Assembly: GCF_900094885.1 (NCBI RefSeq)
Contig: NZ_FMBL01000001.1
Span: forward strand, 834,867 to 898,866
Source of the DNA: Bifidobacterium commune
Lineage (GTDB): Bacteria; Actinomycetota; Actinomycetes; Actinomycetales; Bifidobacteriaceae
Length of the DNA: 64,000 bases
Direction of reading: 5' to 3'
Shown: one piece after another, positions 29,452 to 34,993 of the stretch
Numbering within the stretch: position 1 is the first letter of the stretch
How the letters are laid out: each line of letters opens with the position of its first letter
Notes under the pieces: model-generated
What the model saw: only the letters and a program-made list of their open reading frames with translations
What the model was told of the DNA's origin: nothing
Database searches by the model: none
Program-made: the position numbers and the translations under genes

Positions 29452-29906
29452 AATGTCTCCTAAGGAATTCAGGTGACCCGGGTCGCCTAGCCCCGATGGC
29501 CGGACGTGAACCGGAACAGTGAAATTGTACCAACGAGCGTTGACCTCTGTCCCTTACAAAGAGGCGACCAAAATGAGCCGCTTCCACTTTCGCAGATCGA
29601 ACAACAGCTCTCGCTGTGATAACCGCAAGAATGGTCAAATCATACCCGAATTATTCCGTGAGCCGATTCGATTGCGAGCAGACTGTGCAACATGGAAACA
29701 TCAAAGACACCGGAACTGCGGCATAACCTGGAGCACCAAGGCAGACGCAAATTCCATGACGCAGAGTTCAACATACCGACCAGTTTTTGCCGGCATCGCA
29801 TATTGACGACTCACCTTGTTGCCGACATCCGAAACCCGAAAGACGGGGCACAAACCGATTCTTTAAGCCCATCCAACCCTGCCATGCGCGCAAAAACGGA
29901 AAAATC
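29452..29906. other. Intergenic region, no gene seen
   Basis: About 450 bp between rpmE and the tRNA terminator. It contains the rpmE promoter region. Open frames here on either strand have no convincing start site or protein-like composition. Confidence 0.5.
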
Positions 29907-30102: not shown

Positions 30103-30813
30103 TTACTGCCTTCTTACAGCACGGCCCGAAGCAAAGCGGTCAAGCGCACCCGTCCTGGCGATGGCCAAATACAACACCCAACTCATCACGCCGGCGATCA
30201 GCGCGCCACCGATAACCTCACAAACCATGTGCGTGATGCCCCTTGCACTGAGGAATGCCACACCTTGAAATCTGAAAACAAGGACGAAGATACCATATTC
30301 GACAGCCGTCAGAACCCCTGAAACGACAGTCAGCGGAAGATTGAACCGCCGATACCGCTCAATGGTGAAAGGCAGCTCGGCGAATACACCCTGCAACAAA
30401 GCGGAGAGAAATACGAAACCGAACGAATACGAATTGCCGAAAACCATCTCCGCAACACTGCCGACGAAATTCACATAGACTGCTGCCCCGGGTTTGCGAA
30501 TGATGAGCACGGCCAACGGACCGGAAAAATACCAAAAAGCATGCAGGAGACTTGCCACGCCGGGCAACACAGCACCAAGTAGTGGAGAAATCCACGAATA
30601 GGCGAAATTGAACCCCCAGAACACTACACCACAAGCCACACCCAAGGCCGCACCGACTGCAATATCCGCGGCACGCCAACGCAAACGAGATCCCCTGTTC
30701 GCAGGAATCTGCGCTACGGCGTCAGAGGGACGGGATATGGATTCATTCGACTTGACAGAAGACGTTGAAGACAATCGGGATGATTGTTCCGGCTTTGAGA
30801 CATGAGCGGCCAT
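30103..30813 (-). CDS. ECF transporter S component, YkoE type
   Basis: Predicted substrate-binding membrane subunit of an energy-coupling factor importer, 236 aa. After a polar N-terminus of about 50 residues come five or six helices. The core (RWRAADIAVGAALGVACGV, then FWGFNFAY and KPGAAVYVNFVGSVAEM) resembles YkoE, the S-component assigned to thiamine or its hydroxymethylpyrimidine precursor in other bacteria. No ATPase or T-component gene is adjacent and I see no TPP riboswitch upstream, so substrate assignment is by family only. The ATG at 30813 has AAGGA 6 nt upstream; a longer start at 30894 is possible. Confidence 0.75.
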   Translation of the reverse strand: MAAHVSKPEQSSRLSSTSSVKSNESISRPSDAVAQIPANRGSRLRWRAADIAVGAALGVACGVVFWGFNFAYSWISPLLGAVLPGVASLLHAFWYFSGPLAVLIIRKPGAAVYVNFVGSVAEMVFGNSYSFGFVFLSALLQGVFAELPFTIERYRRFNLPLTVVSGVLTAVEYGIFVLVFRFQGVAFLSARGITHMVCEVIGGALIAGVMSWVLYLAIARTGALDRFASGRAVRRQ

Positions 30814-31060
30814 GGTGATTCCTTGAATTTCAAGACCGCGCACAGCAGTTATCCCAACGCCCCTTGACCTGCGCGGCTCGGGCGGAGACGTCATTCGACA
30901 CTCTAGCAGACAAGTGCATGAACCGTTCGTCTAAGACCAATTGCGTTACCAAGGATTTCAGTTTCCAGGTAGCTTATTGAATCACTGGAGTGCATCAAAC
31001 CGTTTAACCATCAAATCAAATGGCCCGTAGAGCGGTAGAAGCGCCATCCTATTCGGAATG

Positions 31061-31699
31061 TCACCAGTTTACATGGTCGACAGGCTCATTGAGCGGCTGA
31101 TGGCGCACATTGGAAAGCATCAGCGCACCAAGCTCTCCGGCAGCACGTCGTTCGCGCTTCTCGAGCTCAGGAGTACCAAAGTCTTCTTTCGTCGCCATTA
31201 GACTCGTGGCGGTCGGCACAGCCCGGAAGAACGCAAAAAGACCGCGCATAACCACATCTGGCACCAATGCATGGCGGTTCGAACCGCCTGTTGCCGCCAA
31301 TACCACAGGCATATTGATGATCGCGTCTCGGGGCACAAGATCCCAGAACGCCTTGAACAAACCGGAATACGAAGCCTTGTAAATCGGAGAGGCAACAACA
31401 AGCCCATCGGCGGCCCCAACTGCGGCAATCGCGGAATCGAGACGCTCACCGTATTTGTCACCTACGGAACCTTTGGCTATATCGTCGGCCAGGTCCCGCA
31501 GCGTGATCATCTCAACCGTTACTTCCTTACCCCGAACTTCGAGGTAAGCCCGAGCCTTTTCGCTGACTTCCTGCGCCAGACGACGCGTACTGGAGGGTTC
31601 CGAGATTCCTGCATTGACAACCGTCAGGTGGCACTGAACCATTTCCGTTTCCGCTTTGGCGGCCAACGTTACGATATCATCCGTCTCTTCAAAACCCAC
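31061..31699 (-). CDS. NAD(P)H-dependent FMN reductase (flavodoxin fold)
   Basis: Predicted cytoplasmic FMN reductase of the NADPH-dependent FMN reductase (CE1759-like) family, about 212 aa. The flavodoxin-like fold shows a phosphate-loop region near LTVVNAGISEPSSTRRLA, ASPIYKASYSGLFKAFWDLV and the VVLAATGGSNRHAL strand. I favour the GTG at 31699 because AGGAGG lies 8 nt upstream; an upstream ATG at 31762 has no such site. It is one of three related reductases within 4 kb. A pair of inverted TCTCACATG boxes lies upstream. Confidence 0.82.
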   Translation of the reverse strand: MGFEETDDIVTLAAKAETEMVQCHLTVVNAGISEPSSTRRLAQEVSEKARAYLEVRGKEVTVEMITLRDLADDIAKGSVGDKYGERLDSAIAAVGAADGLVVASPIYKASYSGLFKAFWDLVPRDAIINMPVVLAATGGSNRHALVPDVVMRGLFAFFRAVPTATSLMATKEDFGTPELEKRERRAAGELGALMLSNVRHQPLNEPVDHVNW

Positions 31700-31907
31700 A
31701 GTGCGCTCCTCCTCGTAAACATGACTTCGTTCCCGATGCCCATTTCTACTCATTACCGACATGCATCATAACGCCCTTCGGCCAAATCCCGCATGCCCAA
31801 TCACCTTGCAAATCTACCACTTTAACGCGCCCGACACGGAAAAATCCCATACCATTAGCACAAAAGAGGTAACTGTATTCACAATAGACACCCTTAATGC
31901 CTTTGTA

Positions 31908-31916
31908 CATGTGAGA
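31908..31916 (-). promoter_or_regulatory. TCTCACATG box, left member of an inverted pair
   Basis: CATGTGAGA on the plus strand, the exact inverse of the box at 31972-31980, 55 bp apart and about 210 bp upstream of the FMN reductase start. It is a candidate operator shared with other genes of this locus. Confidence 0.45.
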
Positions 31917-31971
31917 TTTTTTACCTTTGCCGACATGACGCGACATCACTCGCCGCAGATTTTGACACAAG

Positions 31972-31980
31972 TCTCACATG
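31972..31980 (+). promoter_or_regulatory. TCTCACATG box, right member of an inverted pair
   Basis: TCTCACATG, matching 31908-31916 in reverse. It lies between the two minus-strand reductase genes. Confidence 0.45.
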
Positions 31981-32046
31981 CGAAACAACACATGGACATG
32001 GCTTTTCATCCGGTCGAGCAGACGATTACCGAACAAATGGATAGCC

Positions 32047-32586
32047 TCATTGCCCGTTGTTTTCAACGTGTTTGGCAAACGCCTCGGCAAAACGACGGAG
32101 GAAATCTTCGGAACCTTCAACAACCTTGCCATTCTCATCCAATCCAGTGACCGCATTGAAATAAAGCTCAGGTTGCCCCATAAGACGCATATCGAGGAAG
32201 AGGGCAACGTTACGCAATGCCTGCTGCGCTTGCGTGGTGCCGAGCGCTCCCATCGACGCACCCACAATGGCTGCGGGCTTGCCGCTAAATGAATTTTCTC
32301 CCCATGGACGCGAGGCCCAATCGATGGCGTTCTTCATGACTCCGGAAAAACTGCGGTTGTATTCCGGCGTGACGAAGAGCACACCGTCGGCGGCCTCCAC
32401 TTTACGCTTCATTTCAGTGACGCTGGACGGCAGATCACCATCAAGATCTTGGTTATACAGAGGCAGGTCCATGTCAATGTAGTCGAATTCCACATCCTCG
32501 GGAGAAAGTCGCTCCACATTCTTGGCAAGACTCTTGTTGACGGATTCCCTACGCAACGATCCTACAAAAACGGCGATTTTGACCAT
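32047..32586 (-). CDS. NAD(P)H-dependent FMN/quinone reductase (ChrR/YieF-like)
   Basis: Flavodoxin-fold oxidoreductase of 179 aa that uses FMN and NAD(P)H to reduce quinones or similar acceptors. Family motifs are GSLRRESVNKSLAKN at the N-terminus (phosphate loop), LFVTPEYNRSFSGVMKNAIDW (the PEYN hallmark), and IVGASMGALGTTQAQ. The ATG at 32586 follows AAGGAG at 7 nt. It is divergent from the ATP-grasp gene, with a 326-bp region between that contains an inverted TGTCATAT pair. Physiological substrate unknown. Confidence 0.88.
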   Translation of the reverse strand: MVKIAVFVGSLRRESVNKSLAKNVERLSPEDVEFDYIDMDLPLYNQDLDGDLPSSVTEMKRKVEAADGVLFVTPEYNRSFSGVMKNAIDWASRPWGENSFSGKPAAIVGASMGALGTTQAQQALRNVALFLDMRLMGQPELYFNAVTGLDENGKVVEGSEDFLRRFAEAFAKHVENNGQ

Positions 32587-32912
32587 GACACCACTCCTTG
32601 TTTCTTTCCCTTGTCGGGGTTTATCAGACGGCGTACACTTTGTGCGACATCTTACTTTTGCTCACCTCCGCAAACGATGTTTCTCATTGCAACGTATAAG
32701 CGGATAAGAATGATGCTATGCGACGTCGGCAGAAGTGTCATATTCCGCCATGAGATAACTGGGAATAAATCGGAATCGACCAAATGTCTAATTATTGTAT
32801 TGCTCAGATATGACATGACCCTTCAAAAAGCTCTCATTCCAATGGTTTTGACTATTCAGCACTGCGGTCTAGACTTGGAGACAGCACAAAAGAACTGTCG
32901 AATCGAGACGTT
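32587..32912. promoter_or_regulatory. Divergent promoter region with an inverted TGTCATAT pair
   Basis: 326 bp between a reductase gene (minus) and the ATP-grasp gene (plus). TGTCATAT at 32736-32743 and its exact inverse at 32808-32815 are 64 bp apart. The motif resembles the TCTCACAT boxes of this locus (6 of 8 bases). No ORF of note. Confidence 0.4.
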
Positions 32913-34034
32913 TTGAGCCCCAATTTTCACGTTATCAGCCCACTTTTCTGGATTCAAAGCGCGTTCAGAGACTATTTCGACAAATCTCACATTACAGATA
33001 CCTCACTTCACCGGACCGGTGTCACCAATGATGTTTCGGACTACGCAGTGCGTGGCTGGAACCTTTCCTACAATTACGGCTTTGAACCTGCGCAGGATCT
33101 GGCGGAGGACGAAGCGGTATGGATTACACCCGATCTGCTCATCGCCCTCAACGGATGGCGGAATCGGCACAACATGGAATCGTTGCTCTTTGAAGCCCCT
33201 CCTGCCAACTGGCTTAGTTCTTTGCCGTCAAAACTGACGGGACGTAAAGCTGTCTGCGCGGATGTGGCCCAAATCAGAACGTGGACGACATTTCCGGATG
33301 GACTGGGTGCCCGTCCTTGGTCACAACTCGGCAATGGGAGGGTTCCTGAATTCAGAGCGGCAAGACGGACTCTCCCCCAATTGCAAGATGATTTGCGCAA
33401 TGCACCAAATGATTCGCTGATTTCCGTCAACGCGCACATCCCGACGATCTGCGAGGAATGGGCCGTCATCATCAATCACGGCGCCGCAGTCGCCGCAAGC
33501 GGATATTGCGTTCACACACCCCTTGGAGAGGAGCAGAGCGACAATACAGACGAAAGCCACAATATTCTTACGGTGTTTGACGAAGCGGAATTTCATGATG
33601 CATGCCGACCTGTCGCCGAAGCCATGGCTACCGCAGCAGCGCAGGCAAGTCATCTGAGCAACGTCAGTATCACCGTGGGTTTTCATTCGACTTCGCCAGC
33701 GGGCATGACCGGAAACACAAATCAGGTAGCTGAACGACAACTGTCCGGAGACCGTGCACCGAAAGCCCTGATTACGGACGAAGAAACCACATTCCAGCCC
33801 TCCGCTGTTGTCGTCGAAGCAGCACCAGTCTGGTGCACAACGCCATATCCCTACCGCTCCATCAAAGAGATAACAGGCTTTCTTGAAGCCATAGCCGATT
33901 CTCGCATACGACAGGAACCAAAAAAAGGCGACCAAGAATGCAGACAACTAGGTATTAAAGGCGGCGTAGACGGCATCTACTTGCCGGACCCTTGGATGGT
34001 CCGACGCAACGTACATCGTTACGACAGATTCTGA
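32913..34034 (+). CDS. ATP-grasp domain protein (R2K-type), start uncertain
   Basis: Predicted ATP-dependent ligase-like protein, about 373 aa. The C-terminal half carries a stretch (VVVEAAPVWCTTPYPY) matching the closing motif of small ATP-grasp proteins of the R2K group often found in actinobacteria. The middle contains strands and helices such as RKAVCADVAQIRTWTTFP and WAVIINHGAAVAASGY that fit the ATP-grasp fold. Substrate unknown. The start is weak: the first possible codon is TTG at 32913 with a poor binding site, and a TCTCACAT box lies inside the reading frame at 32985, so the true start may be later, for example GTG near 33048. No ATG occurs in the first 85 codons. Confidence 0.65.
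   Translation: MSPNFHVISPLFWIQSAFRDYFDKSHITDTSLHRTGVTNDVSDYAVRGWNLSYNYGFEPAQDLAEDEAVWITPDLLIALNGWRNRHNMESLLFEAPPANWLSSLPSKLTGRKAVCADVAQIRTWTTFPDGLGARPWSQLGNGRVPEFRAARRTLPQLQDDLRNAPNDSLISVNAHIPTICEEWAVIINHGAAVAASGYCVHTPLGEEQSDNTDESHNILTVFDEAEFHDACRPVAEAMATAAAQASHLSNVSITVGFHSTSPAGMTGNTNQVAERQLSGDRAPKALITDEETTFQPSAVVVEAAPVWCTTPYPYRSIKEITGFLEAIADSRIRQEPKKGDQECRQLGIKGGVDGIYLPDPWMVRRNVHRYDRF
32985..32992 (+). promoter_or_regulatory. TCTCACAT box near the ATP-grasp gene start
   Basis: Same 8-mer as the boxes at 31908 and 31972, preceded by CAAA. It falls inside the 5' end of the open frame as drawn, so either the gene starts further on or this copy is chance. Confidence 0.3.
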
Positions 34035-34217
34035 ATCAGGGCCAGCGTCAACGCTTAAAACCGTAAATCAGTTGACGACTTTCAAGTCCGCTTTCATGAA
34101 ATCCCGAAGCAGTTGAATTCGACCGAACTGTTCGCACGTCGGAGTCTTACCCCGTACAACACCCTGTAGTTTGGGGTTGCCATGCCCATACATGTTTCAG
34201 CCCCTGCCTAGGGTCAT

Positions 34218-34826
34218 TTATGCCATGGAAGCGCCAAGCTTCTTGATGCGCTGGATATGTTCAGAAGCGGCCTCACGTGCAGGCTGCGAGCCATCGCCCA
34301 TATTCAGGTCGTCAACGTACACCAGATCGGCATCATTCACACCGCAATACTGATGGAACATATAGTTGACGACTTGGTTATATAGAGACTCGTGCATACC
34401 GGACTCGCGATACCAGTCCTTCGAGCTGCCGGTAAGTGCAATGAACCGGAACTTCTTGTCGGCAATAGCCGATTTGCTGCCATCGCGGTTGTACCCAAAA
34501 TGACGGCACAGCACACGATCAACAAAGCCTTTCATCATCGCTGGCATGGTGAACCAGTAAATCGGGCAGACCATCGCAATGACGTCGGCATCCGCAATCT
34601 TGCGCTGCATCTGCGCGACATCGTCCGGCATTGGCCCCTCATCAAGATACTGCGTGCGATCGGCAATCGTGTATCTTGGATCAAAACCGACGGCGTGCAG
34701 GTCAACGAACTCAGTGTCCGCGCCTTTGCTTGCGGCGCCCTCAAGAAACGCCTTGCCAATATACTGCGTCAGCGACTCCGGATCCGGATTCGCCGTGATT
34801 GCTAAGAATTTGCTCATGTAGCCCAT
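34218..34826 (-). CDS. NAD(P)H-dependent flavodoxin-fold oxidoreductase (NQO/AzoR/KefF-like)
   Basis: FMN- or FAD-dependent quinone/azo-type reductase of 202 aa. The N-terminal strand and loop LAITANPDPESLTQYIGKAF bind the flavin phosphate; MVCPIYWFTMPAMMKGFVDRV is the family signature around the flavin ring; FIALTGSSKDWYRESG is the third binding loop. Two ATGs (34826 and 34817) are both without a clear ribosome-binding site. TACAAT lies immediately before the first ATG, so a leaderless or very short leader mRNA is possible. A TCTCACAC box is about 10 bp upstream. Confidence 0.85.
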   Translation of the reverse strand: MGYMSKFLAITANPDPESLTQYIGKAFLEGAASKGADTEFVDLHAVGFDPRYTIADRTQYLDEGPMPDDVAQMQRKIADADVIAMVCPIYWFTMPAMMKGFVDRVLCRHFGYNRDGSKSAIADKKFRFIALTGSSKDWYRESGMHESLYNQVVNYMFHQYCGVNDADLVYVDDLNMGDGSQPAREAASEHIQRIKKLGASMA

Positions 34827-34835
34827 TGTACAAAT

Positions 34836-34843
34836 TAAGTGTG
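34836..34843 (-). promoter_or_regulatory. TCTCACAC box upstream of the third reductase
   Basis: On the minus strand TCTCACAC lies about 10 bp before the start of the reductase gene, just upstream of a TACAAT sequence. One base differs from the TCTCACAT boxes elsewhere in this locus. Confidence 0.35.
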
Positions 34844-34993
34844 AGATTCCTCCAACGCTTCATTAAGGACCCAAAGAGCACAATTCCAAACCGCGAATGC
34901 TTATTCCACACAGTAAGACAAAACAAAAGGGAAACCAGCAGGATCTTTAATATTAAACTCACGTAAATTCCTTCATAAGAAAGCAAGGCAGAG

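What the first reader, a model, noticed from the sequence alone, without database searches (positions are those of the whole stretch)
31061..34843. Flavoreductase/ATP-grasp locus sharing a TNTCAYAT-type box
Three flavodoxin-fold reductases and one ATP-grasp gene lie together, and their upstream regions share related 8-9-mers. CATGTGAGA and TCTCACATG form an exact inverted pair (31908, 31972). TGTCATAT/ATATGACA form a second inverted pair (32736, 32808). TCTCACAT is at 32985 and TCTCACAC at 34836. The two inverted pairs have centres 64 and 72 bp apart, as in looping operators. This suggests one regulator, perhaps redox or quinone responsive, and a joint function of the four genes.
Basis: partly seen in the sequence, partly recalled or inferred. 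Interest (0 to 1): 0.6.

Follow-up and report, generated by a model that had tools for sequence, protein, structure and literature searches.

The report
Conserved flavoreductase cluster without shared operator
Some bifidobacteria keep a gene cluster of flavin reductases and an unusual ATP-grasp protein; the repeated DNA 'boxes' seen there are mostly a promoter part or not preserved in relatives, but one sits in a small, strongly preserved DNA element hidden inside a gene.

Summary
The genes are as described: FMN1 (31061-31762), FMN2 (32047-32586) and FLV3 (34218-34826) are flavodoxin-fold reductases; 32913-34034 (ATPG) has an ATP-grasp fold. The neighbourhood is conserved: ATPG is in 25 of 112 genus genomes, all 22 close FMN2 orthologues are among those 25, and FMN2 is divergent to ATPG in 22 of 25 loci. 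A joint role is likely.

The shared-operator claim fails. At the aligned place no relative has the two boxes upstream of FMN1, the half ATATGACA (32808) or the FLV3 box. TGTCATAT (32736) is conserved because it is the -35 region of the FMN2 promoter (14 of 14 near-clade species, 17-bp spacer). Each reductase gene has its own conserved element: FMN1 a GlxR/CRP-type GTGA-N6-TCAC site; FMN2 a TTATTCCCGC element touching its -35; FLV3 a TACAAT -10 just before its ATG.

One box is interesting for another reason. TCTCACAT at 32985 lies inside ATPG, in TATTTCGACAAAnnTCACAT, where synonymous sites are frozen across 14 near-clade species. The element is essentially confined to ATPG and unexplained. Verdict: mostly ordinary regulation of an uncharacterised conserved cluster, plus one unexplained intragenic element.

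The parts
31061..31762 (-). FMN1, CE1759-family FMN reductase
   Evidence: TIGR04037 195.5 bits over cut-off 175.9; PF03358
31811..31819 (-). FMN1 extended -10 (TGGTAGATT), inferred
   Evidence: TGNTANNTT-type in 13 of 13 upstream regions examined, 57-62 bp from the GTGA-N6-TCAC centre (two of the 13 have one more such match nearer the site)
31869..31882 (-). FMN1 GlxR/CRP-type site (GTGAATACAGTTAC)
   Evidence: GTGA-N6-TCAC in 12 of 12 relatives examined, GTGA-N6-TTAC in the window
   Evidence: present; 0 of 12 relatives at the aligned place
   Evidence: present; 0 of 12 relatives at the aligned place
32047..32586 (-). FMN2, NADPH-dependent FMN reductase
   Evidence: PF03358 E 1.9e-40
32713..32718 (-). 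FMN2 -10 (TAGCAT), inferred
32736..32741 (-).
   Evidence: ATGACA/GTGACA/AAGACA with a 17-bp spacer in 14 of 14 near-clade species
32742..32768 (-). conserved element TTATTCCC...GGAAT adjoining the FMN2 -35
   Evidence: TTATTCC in 20 of 22 close FMN2 orthologues; 17 of 20 genus-wide pattern matches at FMN2
32785..32796 (+). TGTCTAATTATT; possible ATPG promoter part
   Evidence: GTCTAATT in 11 of 13 relatives
   Evidence: 0 of 13 relatives
32913..34034 (+). ATPG, ATP-grasp-fold protein; start assigned to TTG (as in 11 of 14 near-clade species)
   Evidence: AlphaFold2 mean pLDDT 83.9; PDB matches LysX/ArgX, Ddl, RimK, Z up to 12.9; starts
32973..32992 (+). intragenic element TATTTCGACAAATCTCACAT with frozen synonymous sites
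34218..34826 (-). FLV3, Flavodoxin_2 oxidoreductase; start more likely at 34817
   Evidence: PF02525 E 1.3e-34; aligned ATG in relatives
34825..34830 (-). FLV3 -10 (TACAAT), 7 nt before ATG 34817; leaderless mRNA inferred
   Evidence: TACAAT in 15 of 15 aligned upstream regions, 14 near-clade and one further species
   Evidence: 0 of 14 relatives

Best explanation
This is a conserved bifidobacterial gene neighbourhood (flavin reductases plus an R2K-like ATP-grasp protein) whose members have separate promoters and no shared operator. FMN1 is probably under the genome's GlxR-type CRP protein, from a site placed like a class I activator site. FLV3 probably has a simple promoter and a leaderless mRNA. 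At the protein level ATPG most likely makes an ATP-dependent amide- or peptide-type bond on an unknown substrate, and the reductases supply reduced flavin or reduce its substrate or product; that last step is inferred from fold and neighbourhood only.
For: Synteny and co-occurrence. FMN2 promoter geometry constant in 14 of 14 near-clade species; upstream element in 20 of 22 close orthologues, and 17 of 20 genus-wide pattern matches lie at FMN2. FMN1 GTGA-N6-T[CT]AC in 13 of 13 at near-constant distance from the -10. One cNMP-binding protein in the genome, matching chains 4byy and 4cyd at E 4e-58 and 7e-58, with an SRETVNKAL recognition helix. TGTGA-N6-TCAC 17 matches in the genome against 6 for the reversed control. 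FLV3 TACAAT next to ATG in 15 of 15. ATP-grasp fold.
Against: No expression or binding data. The window's FMN1 site has TTAC instead of TCAC. Of 8 distinct genomic TGTGA-N6-TCAC sites that my script parsed, only 2 lie outside every ORF of 100 aa or more (7 of the 17 loci were not parsed). The -35 equivalent is weak and the spacer 17-19 in 6 distant FMN2 orthologues. TTATTCC is missing in 2 of 22 close orthologues and in both sister-genus FMN2 loci examined. In the window ATPG has Ala where 20 of 25 relatives have Asp and one Asn in the ExN motif, so catalysis is not assured. FMN1's usual luciferase-like partner family has no match in this genome.
Confidence: 0.6

Rival explanations
1. One reading: one regulator binds TNTCAYAT-type boxes as looping inverted pairs at all four genes.
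For: Boxes exist. Three 13-mers of type AMAARTCTCACAT lie within 1.1 kb; 0 of 100 shuffles of the window reach 3 matches, and the whole genome has only one further match, with 1 mismatch (the pattern was drawn from the three copies). The ATPG copy is constrained in 14 of 14 near-clade species. One relative (ESL0682) has TCTCACAT upstream of FLV3 at another place.
Against: The non-ATPG copies are absent at the aligned place in relatives. Some triple of this quality arises in 10 of 30 order-2 shuffles of the window. TGTCATAT is a -35 region. Conserved elements differ per gene.
Confidence: 0.08
2. GGGAATAA...GTCTAA is a divergent ECF-sigma (RpoE/SigH-like; consensus recalled) promoter for ATPG, and stress control acts through it.
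For: GGGAATAA in 13 of 13 relatives and GTCTAATT in 11 of 13, about 17-18 bp apart in the sequences; PMC9004370 (passages read) speaks of RpoE in all strains it examined.
Against: The conserved block extends towards the FMN2 -35. GTCTAA is missing in L008, L011 and in the distant sequences that still have the GGGAATAA block. A genus-wide search found no wider regulon for the block.
Confidence: 0.15
3. The neighbourhood is conserved only by common descent and slow rearrangement, without joint function.
For: In the family-wide search (189 genomes) carriers fall in 2 of 16 genera; 3 of 5 sister-genus loci examined show no FMN2 within the roughly 1.5 kb of flank held.
Against: Close FMN2 orthologues occur in the genus only where ATPG occurs (22 of 22), and the pair stays divergent although the outer genes change.
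Confidence: 0.2

Closest known systems
R2K-clade ATP-grasp enzymes (CDC123, R2K.2, R2K.3; PMC4431377, passages read, parts of the abstract among them)
   Same: ATP-grasp fold; weak Pfam matches to R2K_2 (3 of 25 members) and R2K_3 (2 of 25); E-x-D/N motif in 21 of 25
   Different: No lysine among invariant or nearly invariant columns of 25 sequences; invariant C199, H201 and C308; third residue of the ExN motif varies; next to flavin reductases, not a context named in the passages read
CE1758/CE1759 luciferase-like monooxygenase plus FMN reductase duo (TIGR04036/TIGR04037)
   Same: FMN1 passes the CE1759 cut-off; relative G080 has a CE1758 match beside FMN1
   Different: No CE1758 match in the window's genome; FMN1 stands beside FMN2 and ATPG
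GlxR/CRP-type activator sites (TGTGA-N6-TCACA; consensus recalled)
   Same: GTGA-N6-TCAC at FMN1, class-I-like spacing, GlxR-like protein encoded in the genome
   Different: One or more outer positions depart from the full palindrome; binding not shown

Membership tests
ATP-grasp superfamily (ATPG) | ATP-grasp fold | tested here: met
   Model mean pLDDT 83.9; the 50 VIA rows shown (Z 11.1-12.9) are ATP-grasp ligases (LysX/ArgX, Ddl and D-Ala-D-Lac ligases, RimK, DcsG)
ATP-grasp superfamily (ATPG) | ExN metal motif | tested here: inconclusive
   E302 invariant in 25 of 25; third residue D in 20, N in 1 (L023), A in the window, G in L013, E in L024, T in L021
R2K clade | two conserved lysines in the RAGNYA domain (PMC4431377) | tested here: not met
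   No lysine among invariant or at-least-90% columns of 25 sequences
R2K clade | Pfam R2K profile match | tested here: inconclusive
   Best E 0.0015 (R2K_3, 2 of 25 members) and 0.0095 (R2K_2, 3 of 25); none for the window protein
CE1759 FMN reductases (FMN1) | TIGR04037 above cut-off | tested here: met
   195.5 against 175.9 bits
CE1758/CE1759 duo | luciferase-like partner CE1758 | tested here: not met
   No TIGR04036 match in the window's genome, 95% complete
GlxR/CRP-regulated promoter (FMN1) | conserved GTGA-N6-TCAC at activator distance | tested here: met
   13 of 13 upstream regions examined with T[CT]AC allowed, 12 with TCAC
GlxR/CRP-regulated promoter (FMN1) | binding and regulation in vivo | not testable with these tools
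   none
single regulon with a shared operator at all four genes | same box conserved upstream of all four genes | tested here: not met

The most novel reading that the evidence does not exclude
TATTTCGACAAAnnTCACAT at codons 21-27 of ATPG is a dedicated intragenic control element: a DNA site for a factor that represses or loops to the divergent FMN2/ATPG promoters, or a site acting in the ATPG mRNA.
Probability: 0.2. Interest if true: 0.55.

Novelty: new variant of a known kind. Interest (0 to 1): 0.38.

Why it matters
It turns a vague shared-box idea into specific promoter and site predictions. It points to an uncharacterised ATP-grasp family with invariant Cys and His residues that travels with flavin reductases in a set of bifidobacteria. 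It also isolates a short intragenic element under strong nucleotide-level constraint that none of the readings tested here explains.

Tried and rejected
RNA structure as the cause of the intragenic constraint: the consensus fold over 12 of the 14 near-clade sequences (L008 and L011 left out) was weak (-6.67 kcal/mol; 1 of 15 pairs with both sides changed). Not supported.

A genome-wide regulon for the FMN2 upstream element: 20 matches in 112 genomes, 17 of them upstream of FMN2, against 4 for the reversed control. Two of the three others are the same place in two very similar genomes. Rejected.

A regulon for the intragenic element: 19 matches in 112 genomes at up to 2 mismatches, 14 in ATPG, against 13 for the reversed control. 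Rejected.

Reading the intragenic element as a GlxR site: it has TGTGA on the minus strand, but the other half is a conserved TCGAA in most species, where the palindrome needs TCACA. Not accepted. Further copies of ACAAANNTCACAT (one mismatch) in the relatives' loci: one upstream of FLV3 in ESL0682 and one distant in L033; about background.

Literature: searches for R2K with ATP-grasp; Bifidobacterium with CRP and GlxR; with bumble bee and FMN reductase; with R2K or ATP-grasp domain-containing; with bumblebee, oxygen and reductase; with cAMP receptor protein and regulon; and 7ETS alone. By titles and abstract beginnings no listed paper treats this cluster. I read passages of PMC4431377, PMC9004370 and PMC3447821 by term; none of these passages describes it.
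Full report
What is there. Pfam and NCBIfam place FMN1 (31061-31762) in the CE1759-family FMN reductases, FMN2 (32047-32586) in the NADPH-dependent FMN reductases and FLV3 (34218-34826) in Flavodoxin_2. ATPG (32913-34034) has no significant Pfam match on its own. Five matches to R2K ATP-grasp models occur among its 25 aligned members, all weak (best E 0.0015). An AlphaFold2 model built on 15 sequences (mean pLDDT 83.9) matches ATP-grasp ligases in the PDB (Foldseek E 4.5e-06; VIA Z up to 12.9, rmsd 4.6 over 246 residues, LysX/ArgX). The R2K hallmark of two conserved lysines is not met. Invariant residues include E181, E182, C199, H201, D223, E302, W307 and C308. The window lies in a genome of 1.63 Mb in 4 contigs; the 15 named relatives found are all Bifidobacterium.

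Conservation of the cluster. ATPG is in 25 of 112 genus genomes (E up to 0.001). With E up to 1e-20, FMN1 is in 26, FMN2 in 24, of which 22 are close and two remote at E about 1e-21, and FLV3 in 35. Counted on those lists, all 22 close FMN2 genomes also hold ATPG, as do 24 of the 26 FMN1 genomes and 24 of the 35 FLV3 genomes. FMN2 is divergent to ATPG in 22 of 25 loci. A family-wide profile search found ATPG in 52 of 189 genomes, in 2 of 16 genera. Of five sister-genus loci examined, two have FMN2 beside ATPG (only about 1.5 kb of flank was held). Common descent explains part of this, but the tight FMN2-ATPG link argues for a joint role.

The boxes. All stated sites exist except that TCTCACAC is read on the minus strand at 34839-34846. 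At the aligned place, with one mismatch allowed, the 8-mers of the two boxes upstream of FMN1 are found in 0 of 12 relatives, ATATGACA in 0 of 13, TCTCACAC in 0 of 14, and TGTCATAT in 12 of 13 (10 exact). Exact inverted pairs of this size are common in the window, 67 of 9 bp and 146 of 8 bp, although shuffles give fewer, 18.8 and 77.6 on average.

What TGTCATAT is. On the FMN2 strand it reads ATATGACA. In 14 of 14 near-clade species (window included) it holds ATGACA, GTGACA or AAGACA, followed after 17 bp by TAGTAT, TAATAT, TAGCAT or TAGTGT, which ends 68-154 bp before the FMN2 start codon (the script chose the best of 5 positions and 4 spacers, and chose the same in all 14). That is a sigma-A promoter. 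The scan had listed the window copy, among promoter-like sites no more numerous than in shuffles (2 against 3.6). Upstream and touching the -35 lies TTATTCCCGCTTNTCT...AG. TTATTCC is present in 20 of 22 close FMN2 orthologues, in both remote homologues, and in neither of two sister-genus loci. The longer pattern with one mismatch gives 20 matches in 112 genomes, 17 at FMN2, with 4 for the reversed control; the window's own copy differs too much to be counted there. I read it as the binding site of an unidentified activator (inference). In 6 distant orthologues the element stays, but the -35 equivalent is weak and the spacer is 17-19.

FMN1 and FLV3. Upstream of FMN1, 13 of 13 sequences examined carry GTGA-N6-T[CT]AC (12 with TCAC; the window has TTAC), its centre 57-62 bp before an extended -10, TGNTANNTT. 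The fourteenth near-clade genome, ESL0682, whose FMN1 is split, also has the site. The window's genome has one cNMP-binding regulator; it matches 7ets (E 3e-105) and the chains 4byy and 4cyd (E 4e-58, 7e-58), and its recognition helix reads SRETVNKAL. That 4byy and 4cyd are GlxR, and the TGTGA-N6-TCACA consensus, are recalled. TGTGA-N6-TCAC occurs 17 times in the genome against 6 for the reversed control (two sites are counted on both strands). Against a clean regulon: of 8 distinct sites that my script parsed, 2 lie outside every ORF of 100 aa or more; 7 of the 17 loci were not parsed. FLV3 has TACAAT 6-7 nt before the aligned ATG in 15 of 15 upstream regions, 14 near-clade and one further species, which suggests a leaderless mRNA and a start at 34817.

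The intragenic element. TCTCACAT at 32985 is codons 25-27 of ATPG. Among the 14 near-clade orthologues (window included) Y21 is TAT in 14 of 14, D23 GAC in 13 of 13, K24 AAA in 14 of 14, H26 CAC in 14 of 14, S31 TCA in 12 of 12, and the third base of codon 25 is T in 14 of 14 although the residue varies. The run of six fully frozen synonymous columns was reached in 1 of 10,000 column shuffles; the longest runs in FMN2, FMN1 and FLV3 are 3, 2 and 3. The motif TATTTCGACAAANNTCACAT with up to two mismatches gives 19 matches in 112 genomes, 14 of them in ATPG, with 13 for the reversed control. It is thus a local element. A conserved RNA fold is not supported. Two further window copies of a 13-mer around TCTCACAT lie in the FMN1/FMN2 gap; 0 of 100 shuffles of the window reach three matches, and the genome holds only one more, with a mismatch. 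But the pattern was drawn from the three copies, and some triple of equal quality appears in 10 of 30 shuffles of the window, so this does not establish a shared factor.

Mechanism and limits. Shown here: gene families, fold, synteny, promoter-like geometry, element conservation. Inferred: activator at FMN2, GlxR control of FMN1, leaderless FLV3, ligase activity of ATPG, and the partnership of reductases and ligase. Against an active ligase: the window protein has EAAP where 20 of 25 sequences have ExD. Redox or quinone control remains possible for the cluster as a whole; nothing here tests it.

Verdict. The cluster is real and conserved, the shared operator is not supported, and the one surprise is the intragenic element.

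Noticed in passing
window 30103-30894 (-): ABC_cobalt (PF09819) membrane protein next to FMN1; a relative lies near the cluster in 5 of the 15 named loci (L031-L034 and L039).
   Followed up: no
window 29474-29520 (-): L31-Actinobacteria ribosomal protein leader (RF03158), above its gathering score.
   Followed up: no
L059 and L074 (G085:C1:708672-709315): FMN1 of Bifidobacterium sp. ESL0682 is split over two frames, while its GTGA-N6-TCAC site is present.
   Followed up: partly
L045; G049:C2:235762-236238: A short second ATPG-like frame covering only the C-terminal half; L045 is from B. mongoliense.
   Followed up: no
G080:C9:62706-68005: A relative has a CE1758 luciferase-like match beside FMN1, near ATPG and FLV3, and no close FMN2 match.
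   Followed up: partly
L031:11445-14844: Type I restriction specificity genes and a phage-type integrase beyond FLV3 in ESL0682.
   Followed up: no
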